A stretch of DNA of 49,192 bases from Acidobacteriota bacterium (GTDB lineage: Bacteria; Acidobacteriota; Terriglobia; Acidiferrales; UBA7541): assembly GCA_003225295.1 (NCBI GenBank), contig QHYZ01000083.1, positions 1 through 49,192 of the forward strand, read 5' to 3'. Position 1 is the first letter of the stretch. The number at the start of each line of letters is the position of its first letter. The translations under genes and the position numbers were made by a program. Of the stretch, positions 14,571 to 24,686 are shown one piece after another. The notes beneath the pieces were generated by a model. It did no database searches and had not been told where the DNA came from. It was given only the letters and a program-made list of their open reading frames with translations.

Positions 14571-15325
14571 TTTGCCACCCAGCCAAAGGCGGCGCGCGCT
14601 TCGCGCTGAAATTCTTCCTCACTGCTCGAGAGTACGCGCAACCGCTCCAGCGCGATTCTTCGAAATTCACGGCGCGCCCATGCCAGTGCGTTGGTCACCT
14701 CCACGACGGAAAGTCCATATTCTCTTGCCATTTGCTGGTAGGAAATGGTCTCATTTCCTTCCAGGTCGTACGCTTCGAACAGATGAAAAGTGCGCTCGCG
14801 CTCGCGCGAGGCACAGAATGCGCGCAAGTCCTCCACCGCCAGCGCGAAAAGACTTCGCACCCACTCTTTTTCGAAAAACTGCTCGAGTGATTCGGGCGAA
14901 GGAATCCGAGCGGCATCCATCACCGTGGCGCCAAGTTCCTCTTCCGCGCCGGCAAAATCGAGCGCCACGTGCAGTACCGCTCCGCCGCGTTTCTGCCGCC
15001 GCTCGGCTTTGTCTTCATTCATGACAAAGCTGTCGACGCAAACGCGCAAATAGGTTCGCAGCCGGCTCTTCTTCGAATCAAATTTGTCGAGCAGCCCCCG
15101 TTCCAGCAGTCCGGCAAAAAATCCCTGGGTGAGATCCTGCGCATCGTGGGCCGGCCGGTTCCATCGCCATCGCACGTATTTATAGACGGGCTTCCAGTAG
15201 GCCACGCACAGCGCCTCCAGCGCGCCCGCTCGTTCCTCGGCATCGATGCTGTGGGCCCTCTCGATCACCGACCGGCGCGTCAGGGGGAAGCGATCCCCGC
15301 TGGGTTGGAAGTCGTCTTCGCTCAT
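14567..15325 (-). CDS. ECF-type RNA polymerase sigma factor linked to a Ser/Thr kinase
   Basis: A 252-residue sigma factor, longer than typical ECF factors. Region 2 is visible as W-K-P-V-Y-K-Y-V-R-W...DAQDLTQGFFAGLLERGLLDKFDSKKSRLRTYLRVCVDSFVMNE. The region 4 helix-turn-helix is YQQMAREYGLSVVEVTNALAWARREFRRI, with an unusually long linker (about residues 110-190). Sigma factors of this type encoded with a Ser/Thr kinase are known in several groups, where phosphorylation replaces an anti-sigma factor; here that is an inference from the 4-bp overlap with the kinase gene. The ATG at 15325 is preceded only by a weak binding site (GAAAGTGAC). Confidence 0.88.
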
Positions 15326-15505
15326 GTCACTTTCGCCAGATGGCGCACTTGGGGAGGAGTTTATGCAGGACGGTCCGCGCTGACAAGCGGGGTTTAGGGT
15401 GAGCGTCGGGGGGCAGCGTAAAGTCGGGAGGGGTGCGGGGAGGCGGGCGCTGGAAAAACGAAGAGCCCCAAGCGAAATGTCACCGGCATAAAGATTTGCT
15501 TCTCC

Positions 15506-15535
15506 TTGACAGTCTAGGAGACTCCGGAGTATATA
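15506..15535 (+). promoter_or_regulatory. Sigma-70 promoter of the padR-ADOP array
   Basis: A perfect TTGACA at 15506-15511 and TATATA at 15530-15535 are separated by 18 bases. It lies 30 bases before the padR relic and is the only strong promoter seen ahead of the three permeases. Confidence 0.65.
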
Positions 15536-15555
15536 TTCCTAGTCGCTCTAGGAGA
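15513..15555 (+). promoter_or_regulatory. Operator-like palindromes overlapping the padR-ADOP promoter
   Basis: The promoter spacer holds a perfect 10-base palindrome ACTCCGGAGT at 15521-15530. Around it lies an inverted pair CTAGGA (15514-15519) and TCCTAG (15537-15542), with a further direct copy TCTAGGAGA at 15547-15555 repeating the one at 15513-15521. Placement across the -35/-10 interval fits binding of a dimeric repressor such as PadR. The link to PadR is inferred from position. Confidence 0.5.
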
Positions 15556-15565
15556 ACGCGCTCCC

Positions 15566-15868
15566 GTGGACCAGCAACTCGAAGGAGCGCTGGACATGCC
15601 TATCCTCAAGACGGTTTCGCTCGGCTCGCTCGACGGCTACGGCGTTCTGTTGCCCATCCGGCAAATTTCAAAAGACCGCCTGGAAATTCCCCGGCGCCGT
15701 ACCGCCTGGAGCACCTGCGGATTTCGAGCCCCTGGGGAGAGTCGGAGAACCAACAGGATTACTGGCTCACGACGGCGGGGAAACGCCGCTTCCAAACCGA
15801 GGCGGAAAAGTGGAATCGCCTCCGACGTCATCTGGGGAATAATGGCTACGACACACGAGGAAGTATGA
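15566..15868 (+). pseudogene. Frameshifted PadR-family transcriptional regulator
   Basis: PadR proteins of acidobacteria repress neighbouring ADOP permease genes. Here the N-terminal helix-turn-helix part (LEGALDMPILKTVSLGSLDG, ending ISKDRLEIP) is read in one frame from GTG 15566. The second half (YRLEHLRISSPWGESENQQ, LTTAGKRRFQTEAEKWNRL) continues in another frame from about 15690. The tail (SDVIWGIMATTHEEV) returns to the first frame, with the stop at 15866-15868. About six residues normally found before the YRLE segment (QGSLYP-like) are missing, so a deletion is the likely cause. The stop overlaps the first permease start as ATGA. A sequencing error is possible at one site but would not explain both shifts and the missing residues. 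Confidence 0.75.
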
Positions 15869-18507
15869 CCTACTGGAGCCGCCTTCTGTCCTGGCTGCAG
15901 GCCATCCTGCAGCGCTCTCGCCTGGAGAACGAAATGGATCGAGAGCTGCGCTTCCACTTGGAGGCGTACGCGGAAGACTTGATCGAGAGGGGGGTGCCCC
16001 GCGAGGACGCCATGCGCCAGGCGCGGCTGGAGTTCGGCGGAATCGATCGAGCCAAGGAGGAGTGCCGGGAAGCGCGCGGTGTCAGTTTCGTCGAAACTCT
16101 GATCCAAGACTTACGGTACGGTGCCCGCATGCTGGGCAAAAGCCCGGGCTTCACAGCAGTTGTGGGCCTAACTCTGGCCCTCGGCATCGGTGCAAACACG
16201 GCCATCTTCAGCGTCGTAAATGCTGTACTGCTGCGACCACTGCCCTTTCCAAATCCGGAGAAGATCGTGCAGCTGGGGGCGAGCTTGGATAACGGTGAGC
16301 CAAATGGCTCGGTCACGGTACCGCAATTCATTTTTTGCCGCGACCACGGCGAGGCCATATTTGACTCGGTTGCCGGATTTCAAGGGGGCCCAGCATTGGA
16401 ACTCAAGCAGCATGGCCGTGTGGACTGGGTGACTTCACTGTGGGTGACGGATGACTTCTTCCGGGTTGTGGGCGTGCCTCCCGAGCTTGGCCGAGGATTT
16501 CGACGTGAAGAAACGCAGCCCGGTGCGCTTCCTTCCGTGGTACTGAGCGATGCGCTTTGGCGGCGCACTTTCGGCGCGAATCCAGAAGTCATCGGCGCGC
16601 AGCTGTATCTGGACGATGGTGCATACACTATTGTCGGCGTGACGCCGCGCGAGTTCACGTTTGTCGAGCAACCCACGGATGTTTTCATCCCGCTACACTT
16701 GGGTAACTCGCTCGGCGACCAAGGAACGAACACGCGCATGATCGCGCGCCTGAAGCCTGGCATCAGCATTGCTCAGGCGCAGACAGACCTGAAGATCATC
16801 TTCGGGCAGTTTCCAGCGAAAGATAGCCGTCTGTTTGTGGGCGACTACCATCGCTGGCTCGCCGGCGATTCTCGTTCGAGCCTGATCGTGCTTTTCGGCG
16901 CAGTCGGACTTCTCCTTCTCATTGCTTGTGTGAATGTGGCCAGCCTCATGCTTGCCCGTGTTAGCTCGCGCCAGCGCGAGATGTCCATCAGACTGGCTAT
17001 CGGCGCGCGGCCTGGACGTCTGCTGCGCCAGCTCCTTACCGAAAGCTTCTTGGTCGCCTTGATCGGCGCGGGCGCCGGCCTCCTGGCGGCCTATGGGGCT
17101 CTGGGCACACTGGTTTCTGCCATCCCTTTCAACCTTCCTTCGGGCGGTTTGATCCGCCTCGACGGCAAGGTCTTGCTGTTCACGTCCGGAATCGTGCTTC
17201 TGACGACAGTAGCCTTTGGCCTCGCCTCTTTCTGGCAAACAACGCGCGGCAATTTGAACGTCACGCTGAAAGAAGGCGGAAGCCAGACGGGAACGGGCCC
17301 GACCCATAGTCGGCTTCGCAACCTACTGGTGACTTGCGAAGTGGCGCTGTCGCTCGCACTGCTCGTGGGAGCGGCGTTATTTGGTGAGAGTCTCTACCGT
17401 TTGCATCAGGAAAAACTGGGATTCGATCCGCGGAATCTGGTGACCATGACGACTCCGATTGGCCGGGCCAGGAATCTTACCGCCGACCAGGTATGGAACT
17501 TTGAGCAGCAATTGTTGCCGAGAATCCAGAGTCTGCCAGGCGTCAATTCCGCAGCCGTCGTGACTGTCGCTCCGCTGACTGGCCAAGCAAACCTTCCCGC
17601 TCAGTTGCTGGGCAATAACGACGCCGAGCACAGCTTCGGCGGAACGGAAGTGCGAGCTGTTAGTACCGGCTACTTCGCTACCATGCGGATTCCGGTGTTG
17701 CGGGGCCGAGGGATTTTGGAAAACGACACGACCGGCACTTCGCCCGTGGCGGTAATCAACGAAGCGCTGGCACGGCGATGGTGGAATGGCGGCAATCCAA
17801 TCGGCGAGCGTATCGTGATCGGGAGCTTCCGAGGCCACAATTTGCTTAATCATCTGGAACCGCCCCGAGAGGTCGTTGGTGTCGTCGCGGACGTGAAGGG
17901 CAGGGTCCTAGTCCGGCCCGCTCCGCCAATGGTCTATATTCCCGCCGCACAAAATCGCGTAATGCTTGGTGGCACGACCGATTGGGTAGTTCGCACCAGC
18001 AGCTCAACCGATATTGCTGCGGCGCTGCGTCAGGCGGTTGTGGACGTGAACCCCGAGCAACCTATCACCGCGATTCATTCCATGACCGACGTGATCGCGG
18101 GCTCCGTCGCTGGACAGAGTTTTGACGCCTTACTCGTTGGACTCTTTGCGGGTATAGCGCTTGCGCTGGCTTCCGTTGGAATGTACGGCGTCTTAAATTT
18201 GTACGTCACCCAGCGGACGCACGAAATAGGTGTTCGTATTGCCATGGGAGCGCACCCGCGACAACTGTTGAAGCTGGTGGTGGCCCAAGGCCTTGGTTGG
18301 GCACTCGCAGGCGTGCTGATCGGTACGGCGACAGCACTGGGCCTGTCTCGGTTTCTGACGACCCTGCTGTATCAAGTCAAGCCCACCAGCTATGCGCCCT
18401 ATTTGGTTGGTGCGATCCTTTCTTTGGCAGTGGCGGCGCTGGCCAGTTACATTCCGGCACGTCGGGCCATGCGTGTCGATCCGATAGTCGCGTTGCGGTG
18501 CGAATAA
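15865..18507 (+). CDS. ABC transporter permease, ADOP type (copy 1)
   Basis: An 880-residue protein of the acidobacterial duplicated orphan permease family. An N-terminal soluble domain (about 1-75: MTYWSRLLSWLQAIL..EMDRELRFHLEAYAEDLIERG..ARLEFGGIDRAKEECREARG) precedes the first transmembrane helix at TAVVGLTLALGIGANTAIFSVVNAVLLRPLP. A MacB-type periplasmic domain and FtsX-like three-helix block follow, then a second repeat of the same layout ending IPARRAMRVDPIVALRCE. Members are known for lacking adjacent ATPases, as here. ATG 15865 overlaps the padR relic stop (ATGA). The padR middle segment is open in the same frame upstream, but the family N-terminus begins here. Substrate unknown. Confidence 0.92.
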   Translation: MTYWSRLLSWLQAILQRSRLENEMDRELRFHLEAYAEDLIERGVPREDAMRQARLEFGGIDRAKEECREARGVSFVETLIQDLRYGARMLGKSPGFTAVVGLTLALGIGANTAIFSVVNAVLLRPLPFPNPEKIVQLGASLDNGEPNGSVTVPQFIFCRDHGEAIFDSVAGFQGGPALELKQHGRVDWVTSLWVTDDFFRVVGVPPELGRGFRREETQPGALPSVVLSDALWRRTFGANPEVIGAQLYLDDGAYTIVGVTPREFTFVEQPTDVFIPLHLGNSLGDQGTNTRMIARLKPGISIAQAQTDLKIIFGQFPAKDSRLFVGDYHRWLAGDSRSSLIVLFGAVGLLLLIACVNVASLMLARVSSRQREMSIRLAIGARPGRLLRQLLTESFLVALIGAGAGLLAAYGALGTLVSAIPFNLPSGGLIRLDGKVLLFTSGIVLLTTVAFGLASFWQTTRGNLNVTLKEGGSQTGTGPTHSRLRNLLVTCEVALSLALLVGAALFGESLYRLHQEKLGFDPRNLVTMTTPIGRARNLTADQVWNFEQQLLPRIQSLPGVNSAAVVTVAPLTGQANLPAQLLGNNDAEHSFGGTEVRAVSTGYFATMRIPVLRGRGILENDTTGTSPVAVINEALARRWWNGGNPIGERIVIGSFRGHNLLNHLEPPREVVGVVADVKGRVLVRPAPPMVYIPAAQNRVMLGGTTDWVVRTSSSTDIAAALRQAVVDVNPEQPITAIHSMTDVIAGSVAGQSFDALLVGLFAGIALALASVGMYGVLNLYVTQRTHEIGVRIAMGAHPRQLLKLVVAQGLGWALAGVLIGTATALGLSRFLTTLLYQVKPTSYAPYLVGAILSLAVAALASYIPARRAMRVDPIVALRCE

Positions 18508-18532
18508 GTGGTGGTCCTTTCCGGACCACCAC
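18508..18532 (+). other. Perfect hairpin directly after ADOP copy 1
   Basis: Ten-base arms GTGGTGGTCC (18508-18517) and GGACCACCAC (18523-18532) enclose a 5-base loop and start at the base after the stop codon. No U-tract follows, so it is not a standard intrinsic terminator. It could stabilise the upstream message or weaken read-through into copy 2. Confidence 0.5.
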
Positions 18533-18642
18533 GGACCATGAATGCAGGGGTAAGGAAACTCTAGAGAAAGAGATTTACGACCTACTTTCGAAGGAATAAG
18601 TGACGTGCTCGAAGGAATCCTGCCTACGACAGCAGAGGAAGT

Positions 18643-21303
18643 ATGAGGCTCTGGAGCCGGCTTCGTTCGTGGTGGAACGCAACCCTGCGGCGCCCCCGGA
18701 TGGAGAGCGAGATGGATAGGGAGCTGCGTTTTCACCAGCAGGCTTACGCGGAGGATTTGATTCACAGGGGCGTGTCCTGCGAGGAAGCGATGCGGCGGGC
18801 GCGGCTGGAATTTGGCGGAATCGAGCGAGCCAAAGAAGAATGCCGCGAGGCAAGAGGCGTGAATCTTGTGGAATCTCTGATCCAGGATTTGCGCTATGGC
18901 GCTCGCACACTCGGCAAGAACCCCGGCTTCACGGTTACTGCGGTCCTCACACTCGCGCTCGGCATCGGCGCGAGCACGTCCGTTTTCAGCCTGATCAATG
19001 CCGTGTTGATACGTTCGCTGCCCTACCACGAGCCGGAACGTCTCGTCTATCTGTGGTCCCCCAATCCGCGGTTCGAGGTGCCGATCGAATACCTAACGCC
19101 GATGACGGCCGACTTTTTCGACCTACAAAGACAAAATCACTCGTTCGCAACCCTGGCCCTGTTTGGCGTTGCTAGATTCAATGTTGTAAGTGCAGGACGC
19201 GCGGATGTGTGGGGTGGCGCGCGTGTCACCGGAGATTTTTTTCCGACCATGGGAATCTCGCCAAAGCTGGGACGGCCGGTGAGTAACAGGGACGATCAGC
19301 CAGGGCAGGACCAGGTCGTGGTCATCAGCGATCGGTTGTGGCGGGACCGGTTCGGAGCAGAACCGCACATATTGGGCAAGACACTCCTCCTGGACGCCAG
19401 GCGGTATCAAATTATTGGCGTCATGCCTGCCGGTTTTGGGTTTCCGCACGCCACGGACGCCCTGGATGCGGCTAAGGTGACCGACGTGTGGATCCCTTGG
19501 GCCATGACGGAGGAGCAAAAGGCTAACCGAGAAGACAGCGCCGGAGATGCCATTGGCCGGTTGCGTCAGGGAGTCTCCCTAGAACAGGCGCAGGCCGAGA
19601 TGAGCGCGCTGATGGCCAAGATCGACATGATCCGTCCGGTGAACGATCGAGGATTTGGCGCGATGGTCATGCCGTTCACCGCTTCCGGGACTGCCGGGCC
19701 GCGCCACGCCTTGCTGCTCCTGATGGGAGCCGTGACCTTGCTGTTGCTCATTGCCTGCTCCAATGTGGCAAGCCTAGAGATAGCTCGCGCCACCGGGAGA
19801 ATTCGCGAAATGGGAGTGCGGGCCGCCCTCGGTGCCGGGCGGTCACGTTTAGTACGCCAACTCCTTACCGAGTCCTTGTTCTTGGCCGTGGGCGGTGGCG
19901 CGCTGGGGTGTGGCCTGGCGTTGGCCTCGACGCGGCTGCTTGTGCGGCTTGATCCGGGGAACATCCCACGGCTCGAAGGGACATCCCTGGACGGCCGCGT
20001 GTTGTTCTTCGCCTTGGGCGTATCGATGGTCACGGGTTTGTTGTTTGGATTGCTTCCGGCAGTGTCAGCTTCCCGTGGCGATCCTTCTATGGTCTTGAAT
20101 CAATCGGGCAGCAGAAGTGTAAAAGGCACACCAGGCCGGTTTCGTCAGGGGCTAATCGTTGCAGAAGTGGCGCTGACCGTCGTGTTGTTGACCGGGTCGG
20201 GCTTGCTGATTCGTAGCTTGATGAGAGTCCAGTCCGTGGAAAAAGGCTTCGAACCGCACTCGACGGTCACCATGAATCTCTCCCTGGACGCGAGATATAC
20301 GGCCTCCGAACGGCAGACTGCGTTTTACCGCAAGCTTGTCGACACTCTCGGTGCTCTTCCGGGTGTGCAGGCGGCCGGCGCAGTGACGAACTTACCTCTC
20401 GGGCACGGAGAAACCCTCAGCTGGCTAACCGTGGAAGACTATCCGTTTGACGAAAAGGTCTTCTTCCAAACGAGGTCGGTTACGCCTCGCTATTTTGCGG
20501 CCCTGGGGATGCGCCTCTATGAGGGACGGTCCTTCACTGATGACGATACAGCCGGGCGGCCGTTGGTAGCCATCGTTAGCCTGAACTTTTCGAGGAAGTA
20601 TTTCCCGGGGAAGACCATTTTGGGGAAGCGCCTCCATTTCAAGGATGGCAGCCCCAAACCGACTTGGTGGACCATCGTGGGCGTCGTAACTGACGTGCGC
20701 CATGCGAGCCTCGAAGAGAAGCCGCAACTGCAAGTGTACGTGCCGTTCTGGCAGTCGAGCGTAGCGGCCGCCTCGGTCGTCCTTCGAACCAGCGAAAGCC
20801 CGGAACTGCTTGCTGCCGCCGTCCAGAGAGAAGTGAACACGCTGGATCCCGCACTGGCCGTGGCTGACATTCGAACCATGGATCAGCTTGTCGCCGAAGC
20901 CACGGCGGAGCGTCGCTTTCAGACGCTGCTGTTATCGGTATTTTCCGGCGCCGCGCTGGTCTTGTCTCTGGTGGGGCTATACGCACTGCTAGCCTATTCC
21001 GTCCGCCAAAGGACCGCGGAACTCGGGATCCGCCTGGCGCTGGGAGCCCAGAAGCGCGACGTCATGCGACTCCTCATTGGCTGGGGCGCAGGCCTCGCTT
21101 TCACAGGCACAGCGCTGGGACTTGCGTGCGCCTGGATGCTCTCGCGGGTGCTGTCCAGTCTCCTATTTGAAGTGCAGCCTACCGACACAATCACCTTTGC
21201 CAGCGTCGCATTTCTCTTCGGTGGGATCGCTCTCTCGGCATGTTACATCCCCGCGCGACGGGCCATGCGCGTGGATCCCATGGTGGCACTGAGGCATGAA
21301 TGA
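18643..21303 (+). CDS. ABC transporter permease, ADOP type (copy 2)
   Basis: An 886-residue protein with the same layout as copy 1: an N-terminal soluble domain (MRLWSRLRSWWNATLRRPRM...ARLEFGGIERAKEECREARG), a first membrane helix at TVTAVLTLALGIGASTSVFSLINAVL, two MacB-PCD/FtsX repeats, and the ending YIPARRAMRVDPMVALRHE. The first FtsX block shows LLLLIACSNVASLEIARATGR and the second LVGLYALLAYSVRQRTAELGIRLALGAQKRD. The ATG is preceded by GAGGAAG, and a padR-derived tail (PTTAEEV-stop) overlaps it as ATGA. The stop overlaps a tiny cistron leading into copy 3. No ATPase gene is nearby; substrate unknown. Confidence 0.92.
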   Translation: MRLWSRLRSWWNATLRRPRMESEMDRELRFHQQAYAEDLIHRGVSCEEAMRRARLEFGGIERAKEECREARGVNLVESLIQDLRYGARTLGKNPGFTVTAVLTLALGIGASTSVFSLINAVLIRSLPYHEPERLVYLWSPNPRFEVPIEYLTPMTADFFDLQRQNHSFATLALFGVARFNVVSAGRADVWGGARVTGDFFPTMGISPKLGRPVSNRDDQPGQDQVVVISDRLWRDRFGAEPHILGKTLLLDARRYQIIGVMPAGFGFPHATDALDAAKVTDVWIPWAMTEEQKANREDSAGDAIGRLRQGVSLEQAQAEMSALMAKIDMIRPVNDRGFGAMVMPFTASGTAGPRHALLLLMGAVTLLLLIACSNVASLEIARATGRIREMGVRAALGAGRSRLVRQLLTESLFLAVGGGALGCGLALASTRLLVRLDPGNIPRLEGTSLDGRVLFFALGVSMVTGLLFGLLPAVSASRGDPSMVLNQSGSRSVKGTPGRFRQGLIVAEVALTVVLLTGSGLLIRSLMRVQSVEKGFEPHSTVTMNLSLDARYTASERQTAFYRKLVDTLGALPGVQAAGAVTNLPLGHGETLSWLTVEDYPFDEKVFFQTRSVTPRYFAALGMRLYEGRSFTDDDTAGRPLVAIVSLNFSRKYFPGKTILGKRLHFKDGSPKPTWWTIVGVVTDVRHASLEEKPQLQVYVPFWQSSVAAASVVLRTSESPELLAAAVQREVNTLDPALAVADIRTMDQLVAEATAERRFQTLLLSVFSGAALVLSLVGLYALLAYSVRQRTAELGIRLALGAQKRDVMRLLIGWGAGLAFTGTALGLACAWMLSRVLSSLLFEVQPTDTITFASVAFLFGGIALSACYIPARRAMRVDPMVALRHE

Positions 21304-21338
21304 TGGAAATCCTGGGGACCATGGCGGAGGAAGTATGA
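21303..21338 (+). CDS. Eleven-codon relic of a padR 3' end between ADOP copies 2 and 3
   Basis: Reading MEILGTMAEEV-stop. Its ATG overlaps the copy 2 stop (TGATG) and its TGA overlaps the copy 3 start (ATGA), so ribosomes could pass from one permease to the next. The final A-E-E-V-stop matches the ends seen at the other array junctions and, less exactly (H-E-E-V), the padR pseudogene. Whether it is translated is unknown. Confidence 0.35.
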   Translation: MEILGTMAEEV

Positions 21339-23992
21339 GGTTGTGGAGCCGGCTTCGTTCGTGGTGGAACGCGACGCTGTGGCGTTCGCGGATGGAAAGC
21401 CAGATGGATGCGGAGCTGCGCTTTCACATGGAGGCTTACGCGGAAGACTTGATTCAGAGCGGCGTGCCTTCTCGGGAAGCCTTGCGGCGGGCGCGGCTGC
21501 AGTTTGGCGGAGTGGAGCGGGCCAAAGAGGAGTGCCGCGAGGCAAGAGGCGTGAATCTTGTGGAATCTCTGATCCAGGATTTGCGCTATGGCACAGGCAA
21601 CATGCTGCGTACGCCGGGCTTCACGGCGATCACCGTACTCACACTGGCGCTCGGAATCGGCGCCACGACGGCGATCTTCAGCGCGGTGAACCCCATCTTG
21701 TTCGAACCGCTGCCGTACCCGCACGCCAGCCGGATCATGATGATCTGGGATTTCGGGACCGCCGGCTCGCGCAGCCATATTGCGTTCCATACGTATCGCG
21801 AACTGGCGGAGCGGAGCCGTTCCTTCGACGCGATCGCCGTGATGAAGGTATGGCAGCCGACACTGGTCAGTGTGAGGGAACCAGAACGATTCGATGGGCA
21901 GTTCGTGAGCGCTGGCTACTTCCGAGTGCTAGGTGTGCCGCCGTTTCTGGGAAGAGACTTTGAGGCCTCCGACGATCGACTCAACGGGCCACACGTGGTG
22001 ATCCTCAGCGATGCATTGTGGAGGCGTCGCTTTGGCGGCGATCCCACGATGATCGGGCGCCAAATCACGCTCGACGACACCAGCTATACCGTGATAGGGG
22101 TGATGCCGAATTCGTTCGAAAACGTTCTGGTTCCGTCTGCGGAGCTCTGGACGCCCTTGCAGTACGATGCGGGACACATCACTTCTTTCCTGACCAGAGA
22201 GTGGGGCAATCACCTGCGGATGGTGGGGCGGCTGCAGCCCGGCGTCTCCACCGATCAAGCCAGGCGAGAGCTCGAAGCAATCGTGCGTACCCCAGTCGAG
22301 GAATTTCCAAGGCCTCCTTGGGAATCCCACAAGCAGGGGTTCATCGTGAATTCGCTGCAGGACGATGTGACGCGCGGCGTGAAACCGGCACTGCTCGCCG
22401 TAGTTGGGGCAGTCCTGCTGGTGTTGGTCATCGCGTGCGTAAACGTGACCAACTTGCTGCTGGCTCGAGGTGTGCGGCGGCGCGGCGAGTTTGCCGTGCG
22501 CACTGCGCTCGGCGCAGGGCGCAGCCGGCTGATTCGCCAGCTGCTCACAGAGAGCCTGCTCCTGGCCGCTAGTGGCGGTGTTGCCGGCATGGCCGTGGCG
22601 CAGCTAGGCGTACGCGCGCTGGTGGCGCTCAGCCCAGCGGAGCTGCCGCGTGTCGGCGCAATCGGTGTTCATGGCCCGGTGTTCGCCTTCGGACTGGGCA
22701 TGACCACGCTGATCGGGTTGGTGGTCGGACTGATTCCCGCACTACGCGCCTCCCGCAACGAACCGCAAATGGGACTACAAGAAAGCTCGAAGCGCAGCGT
22801 TGGCGGACACGGGCGCACGCGCAGCGCGCTGGTCGTAGTGGAAGTCGCGCTCGCTCTCGTTTTGCTGGTGAGTTCTGGTTTGCTATTGCGGAGCCTGGAG
22901 CGTCTGTTTGCGGTCGCTCCGGGATTCGACGCCTCACACTTGCTCACCATGCAAGTGCAGACCTACGGGCGCCGATTCGACGATGATGCCACCTGCAATC
23001 GTTTCTTCGCTCAGGCCCTTGAAGCGGTCGAGAGCGTGCCCGGAGTGTCGGCGGCGGCGTTCACCACCCAATTGCCGCTGAGCGGCGACGCTGACGTGTA
23101 CGGTGTCCAGTTCGAGAATGACAACAAGAGCAGAGACGTTGAGGATGCGTTTCGCTACGGAGTGGCGCCCGGCTACTTTGAAACGATGGGCATTCCGCTC
23201 CGCCGCGGGCGCCTGTTCAACGCGCAGGATGCGGCTGGACTGCCGGTGAGGCCAGTGCTGATAAACGAATCGCTCGCAAAGCGCAAGTACCCCGGCCAAG
23301 ACCCCATTGGGCGGCGCGTTCGCTTTGGCGGCCCCCCCAACCGGCCCTGGGATATTATCGTGGGCGTGGTGGGCGATGTGAAACAGACGTCCTTGGCGGT
23401 AAGCCAATCGGATGCGGTATACGTCACCACTGCGCAGTGGCTGTGGGCGGACGGGACACAGTGGCTGGTGGTTCGCACGCGCGGCGACGCAGCCGCACTG
23501 GGGTCCGCTGTTCAGAAGGCCATCTGGTCGGTGGACAAGGACCAGCCGGTCGTGCGTGTTGCAACCATGGAAGACTTGCTCACCGCCTCGGCTTCCCAGC
23601 GACGCTTCGCGCTGATCCTGTTCGAAGCGTTCGCTCTCGCAGCACTGGTACTCGCGGCTGCCGGCATCTACGGCGTGCTCTCCGGCAGCGTGGCCGAGCG
23701 CACGCGCGAGATCGGAGTGCGATTGGCGCTCGGCGCATCGCGCGAAAGCATTCTCGCCCTGGTAGTTCGTCAGGGGATGATGCTCAGTGGGCTGGGAGTC
23801 ACGATCGGGCTGGTCGGAGCGGTGGCAGGGAGTCAGGCCATCGCGGCGATGTTGTTCGGGGTGTCGCGGCTCGACCCGGTCACGTATCTCGGCATGATCG
23901 CACTGCTCGCAGGCGTATCGGTCGTCGCGTGCAGCGTGCCGGCCTGGCGCGCCATGCGCGTGGATCCGATGGTGGCGCTGAGGCATGAATGA
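21335..23992 (+). CDS. ABC transporter permease, ADOP type (copy 3)
   Basis: An 885-residue protein with N-terminal domain MRLWSRLRSWWNATLWRSRM...LQFGGVERAKEECREARG, a first membrane helix at TAITVLTLALGIGATTAIFSAVNPIL, then two MacB-PCD/FtsX repeats, ending VPAWRAMRVDPMVALRHE. The start is ATG 21335, where the family N-terminus begins and GAGGAAG sits upstream; an upstream in-frame ATG at 21296 lies inside copy 2 and is rejected. A 60-base block encoding the end of the N-terminal domain (21533-21592) is identical to copy 2 at 18841-18900, whereas the periplasmic domains differ strongly. No ATPase is adjacent. Confidence 0.92.
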   Translation: MRLWSRLRSWWNATLWRSRMESQMDAELRFHMEAYAEDLIQSGVPSREALRRARLQFGGVERAKEECREARGVNLVESLIQDLRYGTGNMLRTPGFTAITVLTLALGIGATTAIFSAVNPILFEPLPYPHASRIMMIWDFGTAGSRSHIAFHTYRELAERSRSFDAIAVMKVWQPTLVSVREPERFDGQFVSAGYFRVLGVPPFLGRDFEASDDRLNGPHVVILSDALWRRRFGGDPTMIGRQITLDDTSYTVIGVMPNSFENVLVPSAELWTPLQYDAGHITSFLTREWGNHLRMVGRLQPGVSTDQARRELEAIVRTPVEEFPRPPWESHKQGFIVNSLQDDVTRGVKPALLAVVGAVLLVLVIACVNVTNLLLARGVRRRGEFAVRTALGAGRSRLIRQLLTESLLLAASGGVAGMAVAQLGVRALVALSPAELPRVGAIGVHGPVFAFGLGMTTLIGLVVGLIPALRASRNEPQMGLQESSKRSVGGHGRTRSALVVVEVALALVLLVSSGLLLRSLERLFAVAPGFDASHLLTMQVQTYGRRFDDDATCNRFFAQALEAVESVPGVSAAAFTTQLPLSGDADVYGVQFENDNKSRDVEDAFRYGVAPGYFETMGIPLRRGRLFNAQDAAGLPVRPVLINESLAKRKYPGQDPIGRRVRFGGPPNRPWDIIVGVVGDVKQTSLAVSQSDAVYVTTAQWLWADGTQWLVVRTRGDAAALGSAVQKAIWSVDKDQPVVRVATMEDLLTASASQRRFALILFEAFALAALVLAAAGIYGVLSGSVAERTREIGVRLALGASRESILALVVRQGMMLSGLGVTIGLVGAVAGSQAIAAMLFGVSRLDPVTYLGMIALLAGVSVVACSVPAWRAMRVDPMVALRHE

Positions 23993-24030
23993 TGGCAGGA
24001 ATCCAGGGGACCAAGGCGGAGGAAGTATGA
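23992..24030 (+). CDS. Twelve-codon relic of a padR 3' end after ADOP copy 3
   Basis: Reading MAGIQGTKAEEV-stop, with the same overlaps as the junction before copy 3: TGATG with the preceding permease stop and ATGA with the next start. It now leads only into the truncated fourth copy. Translation is unproven. Confidence 0.3.
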   Translation: MAGIQGTKAEEV

Positions 24031-24134
24031 GGTTGTGGAGCCGGCTTGGAGTGTGGTGGAACACCACGCTGCGGCGTTCGCGGGTGGGCTTCTTTCGTAG
24101 GAGGAGTATTTCTCTTGCGGCTCCAGGAGGGTAA
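24027..24134 (+). pseudogene. Truncated fourth ADOP permease (first ~20 codons)
   Basis: MRLWSRLGVWWNTTLRRSR matches the first 19-20 residues of copies 2 and 3. After this the reading frame diverges (GFFRRRSISLAAPGG) and stops at 24132-24134. The rest of the gene is absent, so this is the left end of a deleted or incompletely duplicated copy. The junction with copy 3 is nearly the same as the copy 2/3 junction. Confidence 0.7.
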
Positions 24135-24178
24135 GAAACAGCGGAGCGGTGCTGAAAAAATTGGTTCGAAACTACAAA

Positions 24179-24207
24179 GGAAGCCGGAGCTGGGGGCTCC
24201 GGCTTCC
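24179..24207 (-). terminator. Intrinsic terminator (probably bidirectional)
   Basis: Perfect 12-base arms (24179-24190 and 24196-24207) with a 5-base loop lie between the truncated permease (+) and the exported protein gene (-). On the minus strand the stem is followed by a T-rich run (CTTTGTAGTTT). It can end both converging transcripts. Confidence 0.7.
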
Positions 24208-24248
24208 GCTCCGTTGGTTTGCCATGGCAGCCGCGACTACATCACGCC

Positions 24249-24686
24249 CTAGCGGGGGGCCAGGCGGGCAACCAACGTAATTTCGCCTTTTGTCTCGGTG
24301 CGCGCCACTTGCGCCAATTCTTTTTCTCGCGGCGATTTAGAGAGTTGTCTTCCACGGATGGATCCCGCCCTCCAAACCTGCGAGAGGAAATAGCGATGGT
24401 CGTAGCGGTTGAAAACCAGCTTCGACTGGGATTGCGGCGCGTTGGCCTGCGCTGCAAATGTGAGCACCATGACCGGCGTGCTCGGGTCCAAGCAGTTAAT
24501 CAAGAGCACCCCGGAACTACTGTCAAATTTCTGGATGCGATACTCGCCGGCCGGCAGCGTCACCTGGCCGGCTGTAAATGCAAATGGAATGTTCACGAAC
24601 ATGGACTCTTCGGCCCGCACAACTTGTGCCGCCACCATGATGGAGAGCACCAGTAAGCTGGCCATCACAAAAACTCGCTTTTTCAT
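24249..24686 (-). CDS. Small exported protein of unknown function
   Basis: A 145-residue protein with a clear signal peptide (MKKRVFVMASLLVLSIMVAAQVVRAEE). The mature part is beta-rich: SMFVNIPFAFTAGQVTLPAGEYRIQKF, SSGVLLINCLDPSTPVMVLTF and SQSKLVFNRYDHRYFLSQVW, ending in a basic tail. Proteins with this N-terminal FxVxxPFxFxxGxxxLPAGxY pattern are frequent in acidobacteria, but no function is established that I know of. A perfect AGGAGG site before ATG 24686 fixes the start; upstream in-frame codons are not used. It diverges from the winged-helix regulator gene across a 264-base intergenic region. Confidence 0.8.
   Translation of the reverse strand: MKKRVFVMASLLVLSIMVAAQVVRAEESMFVNIPFAFTAGQVTLPAGEYRIQKFDSSSGVLLINCLDPSTPVMVLTFAAQANAPQSQSKLVFNRYDHRYFLSQVWRAGSIRGRQLSKSPREKELAQVARTETKGEITLVARLAPR

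What the first reader, a model, noticed from the sequence alone, without database searches (positions are those of the whole stretch)
21303..24030. Relic padR tails turned into tiny coupling cistrons between ADOP permeases
Seen: the junctions before ADOP copy 3 and before the truncated fourth copy each hold an 11-12 codon frame (MEILGTMAEEV, MAGIQGTKAEEV). Each overlaps the previous permease stop as TGATG and the next start as ATGA. The junction before copy 2 (18602-18645) keeps a longer decayed tail (DVLEGILPTTAEEV-stop). All share A-E-E-V-stop, and the padR pseudogene ends H-E-E-V-stop. Known: padR genes usually precede ADOP permeases. Inference: each permease was duplicated with its padR 3' end, the rest of padR was lost, and the remnant was kept as a translation relay.
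Basis: partly seen in the sequence, partly recalled or inferred. Interest (0 to 1): 0.62.

Follow-up and report, generated by a model that had tools for sequence, protein, structure and literature searches.

The report
Leftover regulator tails link permease genes
Between neighbouring transporter-like genes of a soil bacterium lie tiny reading frames that are leftovers of the tail of a lost regulator gene; they carry the next gene's ribosome-binding site and may hand ribosomes from one gene to the next, a known principle with an unusual origin.

Summary
In detail: frames 21300-21338 (MMEILGTMAEEV*) and 23989-24030 (MMAGIQGTKAEEV*) overlap the preceding ADOP stop and end on the next ADOP start. 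Their padR origin is well supported: 31 of 44 intact padR-like genes directly before this ADOP subfamily end in EEV*, and the three window remnants match such tails better than every shuffle. (1) The permeases are not duplicates of each other: bodies are 35-36% identical and nearest body kin lie in other genomes; the array is a mosaic of alike ends and unlike bodies. (2) The peptide is not maintained: differences fall evenly on codon positions (50/52/50 in 127 codons). What persists is a Shine-Dalgarno sequence (14 of 14 junctions with a frame, 15 of 19 without) and, in 14 of 33 long-gap junctions, a closed frame spanning the gap. Selection for that frame is moderately supported (15 true-frame cases against 4 and 2 in control frames) but 19 of 33 lack it. 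Best reading: a padR remnant kept as ribosome-binding site and probable coupling mini-cistron, a new variant of known translational coupling. No expression data.

The parts
15514..15542 (+). promoter-like box CTAGGAG...TATATTCCTAG before the broken padR; the only exact match in the window
15581..15868 (+). padR pseudogene in pieces (15581-15688 and 15691-15831 in different frames); its tail frame ends HEEV* and overlaps the copy 1 start by ATGA
15865..18507 (+). ADOP permease copy 1
18602..18646 (+). padR-tail remnant DVLEGILPTTAEEV* before copy 2; no start overlapping the previous stop (TAA, gap 135 nt)
18643..21303 (+). ADOP permease copy 2
21300..21338 (+). mini-frame MMEILGTMAEEV*: ATGs at 21300 and 21303 overlap the copy 2 stop; its TGA overlaps the copy 3 start; holds GGAGG
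21335..23992 (+). ADOP permease copy 3
23989..24030 (+). mini-frame MMAGIQGTKAEEV*: ATGs at 23989 and 23992 overlap the copy 3 stop; its TGA overlaps the copy 4 start; holds GGAGG
24027..24134 (+). 35-codon stub of a fourth ADOP, alike copy 3 for about 60 nt, then unrelated

Best explanation
The mini-frames are remnants of padR 3' ends, joined to the 3' end of an upstream ADOP when padR-led ADOP units were recombined into arrays and the padR bodies were lost. Shown: homology of the window remnants to padR tails, the stop/start overlaps, absence of peptide constraint, a Shine-Dalgarno sequence in most remnants, the mosaic make-up of the arrays. Inferred: the commonest gap (46 nt, 7 of 33) fits a join in which the upstream TGA overlaps a conserved Met codon of padR (17th position from the end, stop counted, Met in 36 of 44 tails), so that MADVIAGILGTTPEEV* became a ready-made mini-cistron. 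Inferred: a ribosome that ends one ADOP restarts on the overlapping ATG or GTG of the mini-frame, reads a short stretch of arbitrary sequence, stops at the next ADOP start and restarts there with help from GGAGG. The peptide does not matter; the ribosome-binding site does, and probably frame closure.
For: padR tails: 31 of 44 end EEV*, Trp at the 20th position from the end in 42 of 44. Window remnants above all shuffles; two L050 junctions of another subfamily likewise. 33 junctions with gaps over 10 nt: an open frame from a start overlapping the previous stop reaches the next start in 15 in the true frame, 4 and 2 in the control frames; 14 also end on the overlapping TGA. 16 of 25 gaps after a TGA stop are in phase, p 0.0016. 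TGA stop in 34 of 42 ADOPs followed by this subfamily, 17 of 36 at array ends, p 0.002. Codon positions flat, 50/52/50. The promoter-like box has one exact match in the window, at the array head, which fits one transcript. Spacings of about 20 nt nearly abolish coupling in the assays of PMC10666635 (abstract), and 15 nt of upstream coding end can suffice (its section 7).
Against: 19 of 33 long-gap junctions have no such frame. In the 11 junctions with gaps of 10 nt or less the true frame is not favoured (8, against 2 and 9 in control frames), and in 20 junctions of other ADOP types it is 0, against 0 and 4. By distinct gap lengths only 9 of 17 are in phase, p 0.075; open frames given the phase are 12 of 13 against 9.1 expected. 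Outside the last 12 nt only 10 of 29 scored remnants, and 6 of 14 listed mini-frames (window 24027 included, L068 not), exceed every shuffle in likeness to padR. Junctions share modules and are not independent. No consistent RNA structure in 7 junctions. No translation data.
Confidence: 0.62

Rival explanations
1. Ribosome-binding site only: remnants are kept because the last 12 nt of padR hold the next ADOP's Shine-Dalgarno sequence. The open frames are leftovers of padR coding sequence plus the fact that a Glu codon followed by TGA always gives ATGA or GTGA.
For: Shine-Dalgarno-like sequence in 14 of 14 junctions with the frame and 15 of 19 without; 19 of 33 lack the frame; peptide unconstrained; openness given the phase is near the shuffle expectation; true frame not favoured at short gaps.
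Against: In-phase gaps after TGA (16 of 25) and the 15 against 4 and 2 frame counts; preference for TGA stops, though shared ancestry of junctions could produce these.
Confidence: 0.3
2. Tandem duplication of each permease with its padR tail.
For: Copies 2, 3 and the copy 4 stub share near-identical 5' ends and junctions.
Against: Bodies are 35-36% identical; nearest kin lie in other genomes (copy 3 with L091, 73%; copy 2 with L087, 57%); 0 of 40 ADOPs in arrays have their nearest body kin in the same array.
Confidence: 0.05
3. The mini-frames encode a functional small peptide or regulatory leader peptide.
For: Open frames recur at 14 of 33 junctions.
Against: Differences from padR tails fall evenly over codon positions, 50/52/50 in 127 codons, against 0.28/0.27/0.56 per codon between intact padR tails; peptides differ widely in length and sequence.
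Confidence: 0.03

Closest known systems
Mycobacterial interspersed repetitive units (MIRUs) with small coupled ORFs
   Same: A short ORF with no known protein role sits at a gene start and overlaps it by 4 nt, so that translation can be handed on (PMC12548453, section 11 read)
   Different: MIRUs appear to be mobile repeats inserted at start codons; here the short frame is the leftover 3' end of a gene (padR) that overlaps intact ADOP genes in the same way
Overlapping gene pairs coupled by termination-reinitiation (ATGA, TGATG)
   Same: Both kinds of overlap are present at the two ends of the mini-frame; spacing rules as in PMC10666635 (abstract and section 7) and PMC12548453 (section 6)
   Different: The linking cistron is 11-12 codons (5-25 in relatives) and free to drift in sequence; coupling itself is untested here
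Bicistronic design (engineered short leader ORF holding the next gene's Shine-Dalgarno sequence)
   Same: Short first ORF with an internal Shine-Dalgarno sequence and a stop/start overlap (mentioned in PMC12548453, passage seen; details recalled)
   Different: Natural, between two large genes, and of pseudogene origin
padR_acidobact-ADOP gene pairs (TIGR03433, TIGR03434)
   Same: Source of the remnants; intact pairs of this subfamily mostly overlap by ATGA or GTGA
   Different: In the window the lead padR is broken and the inner ADOPs keep only padR tails

Membership tests
ADOP permeases (TIGR03434) | Whole-protein score over the curated cut-off of 622.3 bits | tested here: met
   Copies 1-3: 856.5, 931.9 and 903.1 bits; copy 4 is a stub and was not scored
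padR_acidobact (TIGR03433) | Score over the curated cut-off of 101.8 bits | tested here: not met
   Lead gene gives two pieces of 26.6 and 22.6 bits; the mini-frames match only the last codons of padR frames
Translationally coupled overlapping gene pair | Stop/start overlap of 4 or 1 nt | tested here: met
   Both ends of both mini-frames
Translationally coupled overlapping gene pair | Translation of the downstream gene depends on translation of the upstream frame | not testable with these tools
   Needs a reporter or ribosome profiling
MIRU-type interspersed repeats | Dispersed mobile repeat at many unrelated genes | tested here: inconclusive
   The 12-nt core occurs ten times in the genome; those I placed lie at ADOP starts, but not every one was examined and repeats were not sought genome-wide
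Conserved small protein or leader peptide | Peptide under purifying selection | tested here: not met
   Differences 50/52/50 over codon positions in 127 codons from 13 mini-frames; a fourteenth was too short

The most novel reading that the evidence does not exclude
ADOP arrays are cassette systems: variable permease bodies are exchanged between conserved 5' modules (padR tail, ribosome-binding site, prefix domain) and conserved 3' ends. The recycled padR tail is a sequence-free linker cistron that keeps each newly placed body translationally coupled, so that gaps are selected either to be about 6 nt or to be bridged by a closed mini-frame.
Probability: 0.3. Interest if true: 0.62.

Novelty: new variant of a known kind. 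Interest (0 to 1): 0.42.

Why it matters
It shows how a dead regulator gene can leave a working ribosome-binding site and perhaps a translational linker, and it offers natural replicates (33 long-gap junctions in one subfamily, remnants in a second) for asking whether short bridging frames are selected for coupling. The mosaic structure bears on how acidobacteria came to hold so many ADOP genes: this genome gave 236 ADOP candidates at first look, of which 67 were scored and matched.

Tried and rejected
Whole-gene tandem duplication: rejected for gene bodies. Functional peptide: disfavoured by codon-position counts. Structured RNA junction: 7 junctions folded, z-scores from 1.48 to -2.69, only the copy 2-copy 3 junction clearly stable (3 of 200 shuffles fold as well), so no shared signal; no Rfam family in 15300-24400. 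GAGG inside the upstream gene's last codons as a start signal for the mini-frame: 7 of 14 with a mini-frame, 7 of 17 without, so not specific. Tyr codon TAT giving an ATG in the short-gap class: 7 of 8 Tyr codons, against 4 of 25 with longer gaps (p 0.0005) and 11 of 27 at ends of arrays (p 0.04); suggestive, but found after looking, and the true frame is not favoured over a control frame at short gaps. A syntenic close relative of this exact junction: none seen among 36 genomes of the genus, whose best other-genome matches are 74-79% identical over part of the query (at most 18 candidates per genome were scored). Promoter scan: 3 sites against 2.1 in shuffles. Literature: no paper on padR tails or mini-cistrons between ADOP genes seen in the listings; a statement about those searches only. 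PMC3174227 (Solibacter paralogs): passages only, no mention of padR among its search counts.

Counting notes. Junction counts use ADOPs whose first 79 residues score 100 or more with my own model. L068 is a near copy of L031; with L068 dropped and the window's 24027 junction added the totals stay 14 of 33. Left out before counting: L001-L010 and L015 (contained in longer loci), L071-L080 and L083-L086 (taken as the same records as G-handle loci because contig lengths agree), and L090. 'Intact padR tail' means an open frame of at least 100 codons ending on the ADOP start with no ADOP before it; the frames were not each scored with TIGR03433. In genomes with many candidates the search tool scored only part. 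The tree is a quick one with SH-aLRT support only. An earlier count gave an identical run of 64 bases; the recount gives 60.

Full report
What is there. The window is a contig of an 8.13 Mb draft genome in 385 contigs. Its nearest named relatives, found with the same protein prefix, are acidobacterial metagenome genomes, several labelled gp2. Three full ADOP permeases lie head to tail at 15865-18507, 18643-21303 and 21335-23992, followed by a 35-codon stub of a fourth. The gene before copy 1 is a broken padR. GAGGAAGTATGA stands at each of the four starts and nowhere else in the window; the whole genome holds ten copies.

Where the frames come from. I collected starts of this ADOP subfamily from the own genome, from the order (29 of 95 genomes with matches at E 1e-25), from the class (50 of 399 at 1e-22) and from named contigs. 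In 44 cases an open frame of at least 100 codons, with no ADOP before it, ends on the ADOP start; 31 end EEV*, of which 28 PEEV* and 3 AEEV*; the majority sequence is WNRMADVIAGILGTTPEEV*. The window remnants (AGIQGTKAEEV, EILGTMAEEV, DVLEGILPTTAEEV) match it, and their DNA without the last 12 nt scores above each of 40 shuffles. Over the subfamily, 10 of 29 scored junctions do so, one more ties, and 18 do not, among them 8 of the 14 mini-frames (counting the tie L094 among these 8; window 24027 included, L068 not); for these the padR origin rests on the shared end, the gap length and peptide likeness only. In a second subfamily (L050) two junctions carry tails like that array's own padR (70 and 56; largest shuffle scores 26 and 28, 12 shuffles), one as MLEGLRRVLAPGET* with its own ATG. 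L035 is borderline (30 against 28), and nine of the twelve junctions in that call do not exceed their shuffles. Remnants between ADOPs thus recur, but not everywhere.

What the shared letters mean. E-E-V-stop is GAG GAA GTA TGA: a Shine-Dalgarno sequence (GGAGG or GAGG), a short spacer and the ATGA overlap. A Shine-Dalgarno-like motif lies within 14 nt of the start in 14 of 14 junctions with a mini-frame and 15 of 19 without. Keeping these bases is expected if the next gene needs a ribosome-binding site, whatever the frame does.

How the arrays formed. Copies in an array are not close relatives. In the window, prefix/body identities are 84/35 (copies 2, 3), 71/36 (1, 3) and 76/35 (1, 2). Copies 2 and 3 agree at 76-90% of bases in the first 75 codons, at 34-58% over the body, and at 80% over the last dozen codons; the longest identical run is 60 bases (18841-18900, 21533-21592). 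Of 66 ADOPs compared, 40 lie in arrays of more than one: nearest prefix kin is in the same array for 15 of 40 (1000 permutations: mean 1.2, largest 7), nearest body kin for 0 of 40. In the L050 array prefixes are 73-75% and bodies 31-38% identical. On a tree of 82 ADOPs the junction type is scattered almost as if shuffled (40 changes; shuffled mean 42.2; as low in 28 of 200). Some close body relatives are padR-led in one genome and remnant-led in another (for example L120p1927 and L100m4876; L132 and L113). Ends and junctions therefore behave as modules and bodies as exchangeable parts; whether bodies move or ends are homogenised I cannot say.

Is the frame kept? In 33 junctions of the subfamily with gaps over 10 nt, an open frame from a start overlapping the previous stop reaches the next start in 15 in the true frame, 4 and 2 in the other frames; 14 of the 15 end on the overlapping TGA. 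Seven gaps are 46 nt, which corresponds to a join of TGA to a conserved Met of padR (36 of 44 tails). Of 25 gaps after a TGA stop 16 are in phase (p 0.0016); by distinct lengths 9 of 17 (p 0.075). Given the phase, 12 of 13 are open against 9.1 expected. TGA is commoner before such junctions (34 of 42) than at array ends (17 of 36). Against this, in the 11 junctions with gaps of 10 nt or less the counts are 8 true, 2 and 9 control, and in 20 junctions of other ADOP types 0 true, 0 and 4 control. Eight junctions have gaps of exactly 6 nt, seven of them with a five-codon frame such as MSEEV or MSEEK.

Is the peptide kept? No. Against the nearest padR tail, 13 mini-frames differ 50, 52 and 50 times at codon positions 1, 2 and 3 in 127 codons; intact padR tails differ from each other by 0.28, 0.27 and 0.56 per codon; nine remnants without a frame differ by 0.56, 0.51 and 0.39.

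How it most likely works. One transcript from the array head is suggested by the promoter-like box, which has a single exact match in the window and one match each in 24 of 154 loci, by my reckoning 16 distinct places since some loci overlap. Published assays in E. coli and H. volcanii say coupling nearly vanishes beyond about 20 nt (PMC10666635, abstract), while other studies found some at larger spacings (PMC12548453, section 6). A mini-cistron with overlaps at both ends would bridge a gap of 31-46 nt. That 19 of 33 junctions do without it, and that junctions are not independent, keeps this at probable rather than shown.

Verdict. Observation confirmed; padR origin of the window frames well supported; duplication story wrong for the gene bodies; relay role likely but unproven. 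The nearest known case is the MIRU small ORF of mycobacteria (PMC12548453, section 11). I call this a new variant of known translational coupling.

Noticed in passing
18643-18900 and 21335-21592; also L111, L092, L127, L050 arrays: ADOP genes of one array share 5' ends (about 85 codons) and 3' ends but have unrelated bodies; 60 identical bases in a row between copies 2 and 3 stop abruptly. Looks like exchange of bodies or homogenised ends.
   Followed up: partly
15514-15542; one match in each of 24 of 154 fetched loci, some overlapping: Conserved promoter-like box CTAGGAG, 1-14 nt (pattern), TATATTCCTAG near the head of padR-ADOP loci; possibly promoter plus PadR operator.
   Followed up: partly
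L104:1677-1758 and L123 (minus strand, start 2163): Array-leading ADOPs whose padR body is missing: the promoter-like box lies close before a short padR-tail-like frame that ends on the ADOP start.
   Followed up: no
L050:4930 and L050:7735 (own genome): padR-tail remnants in a different ADOP subfamily, one as a 14-codon frame with its own ATG, MLEGLRRVLAPGET*.
   Followed up: partly
24179-24207: A 12-pair G+C-rich hairpin just after the copy 4 stub, listed as terminator-like on the minus strand.
   Followed up: no
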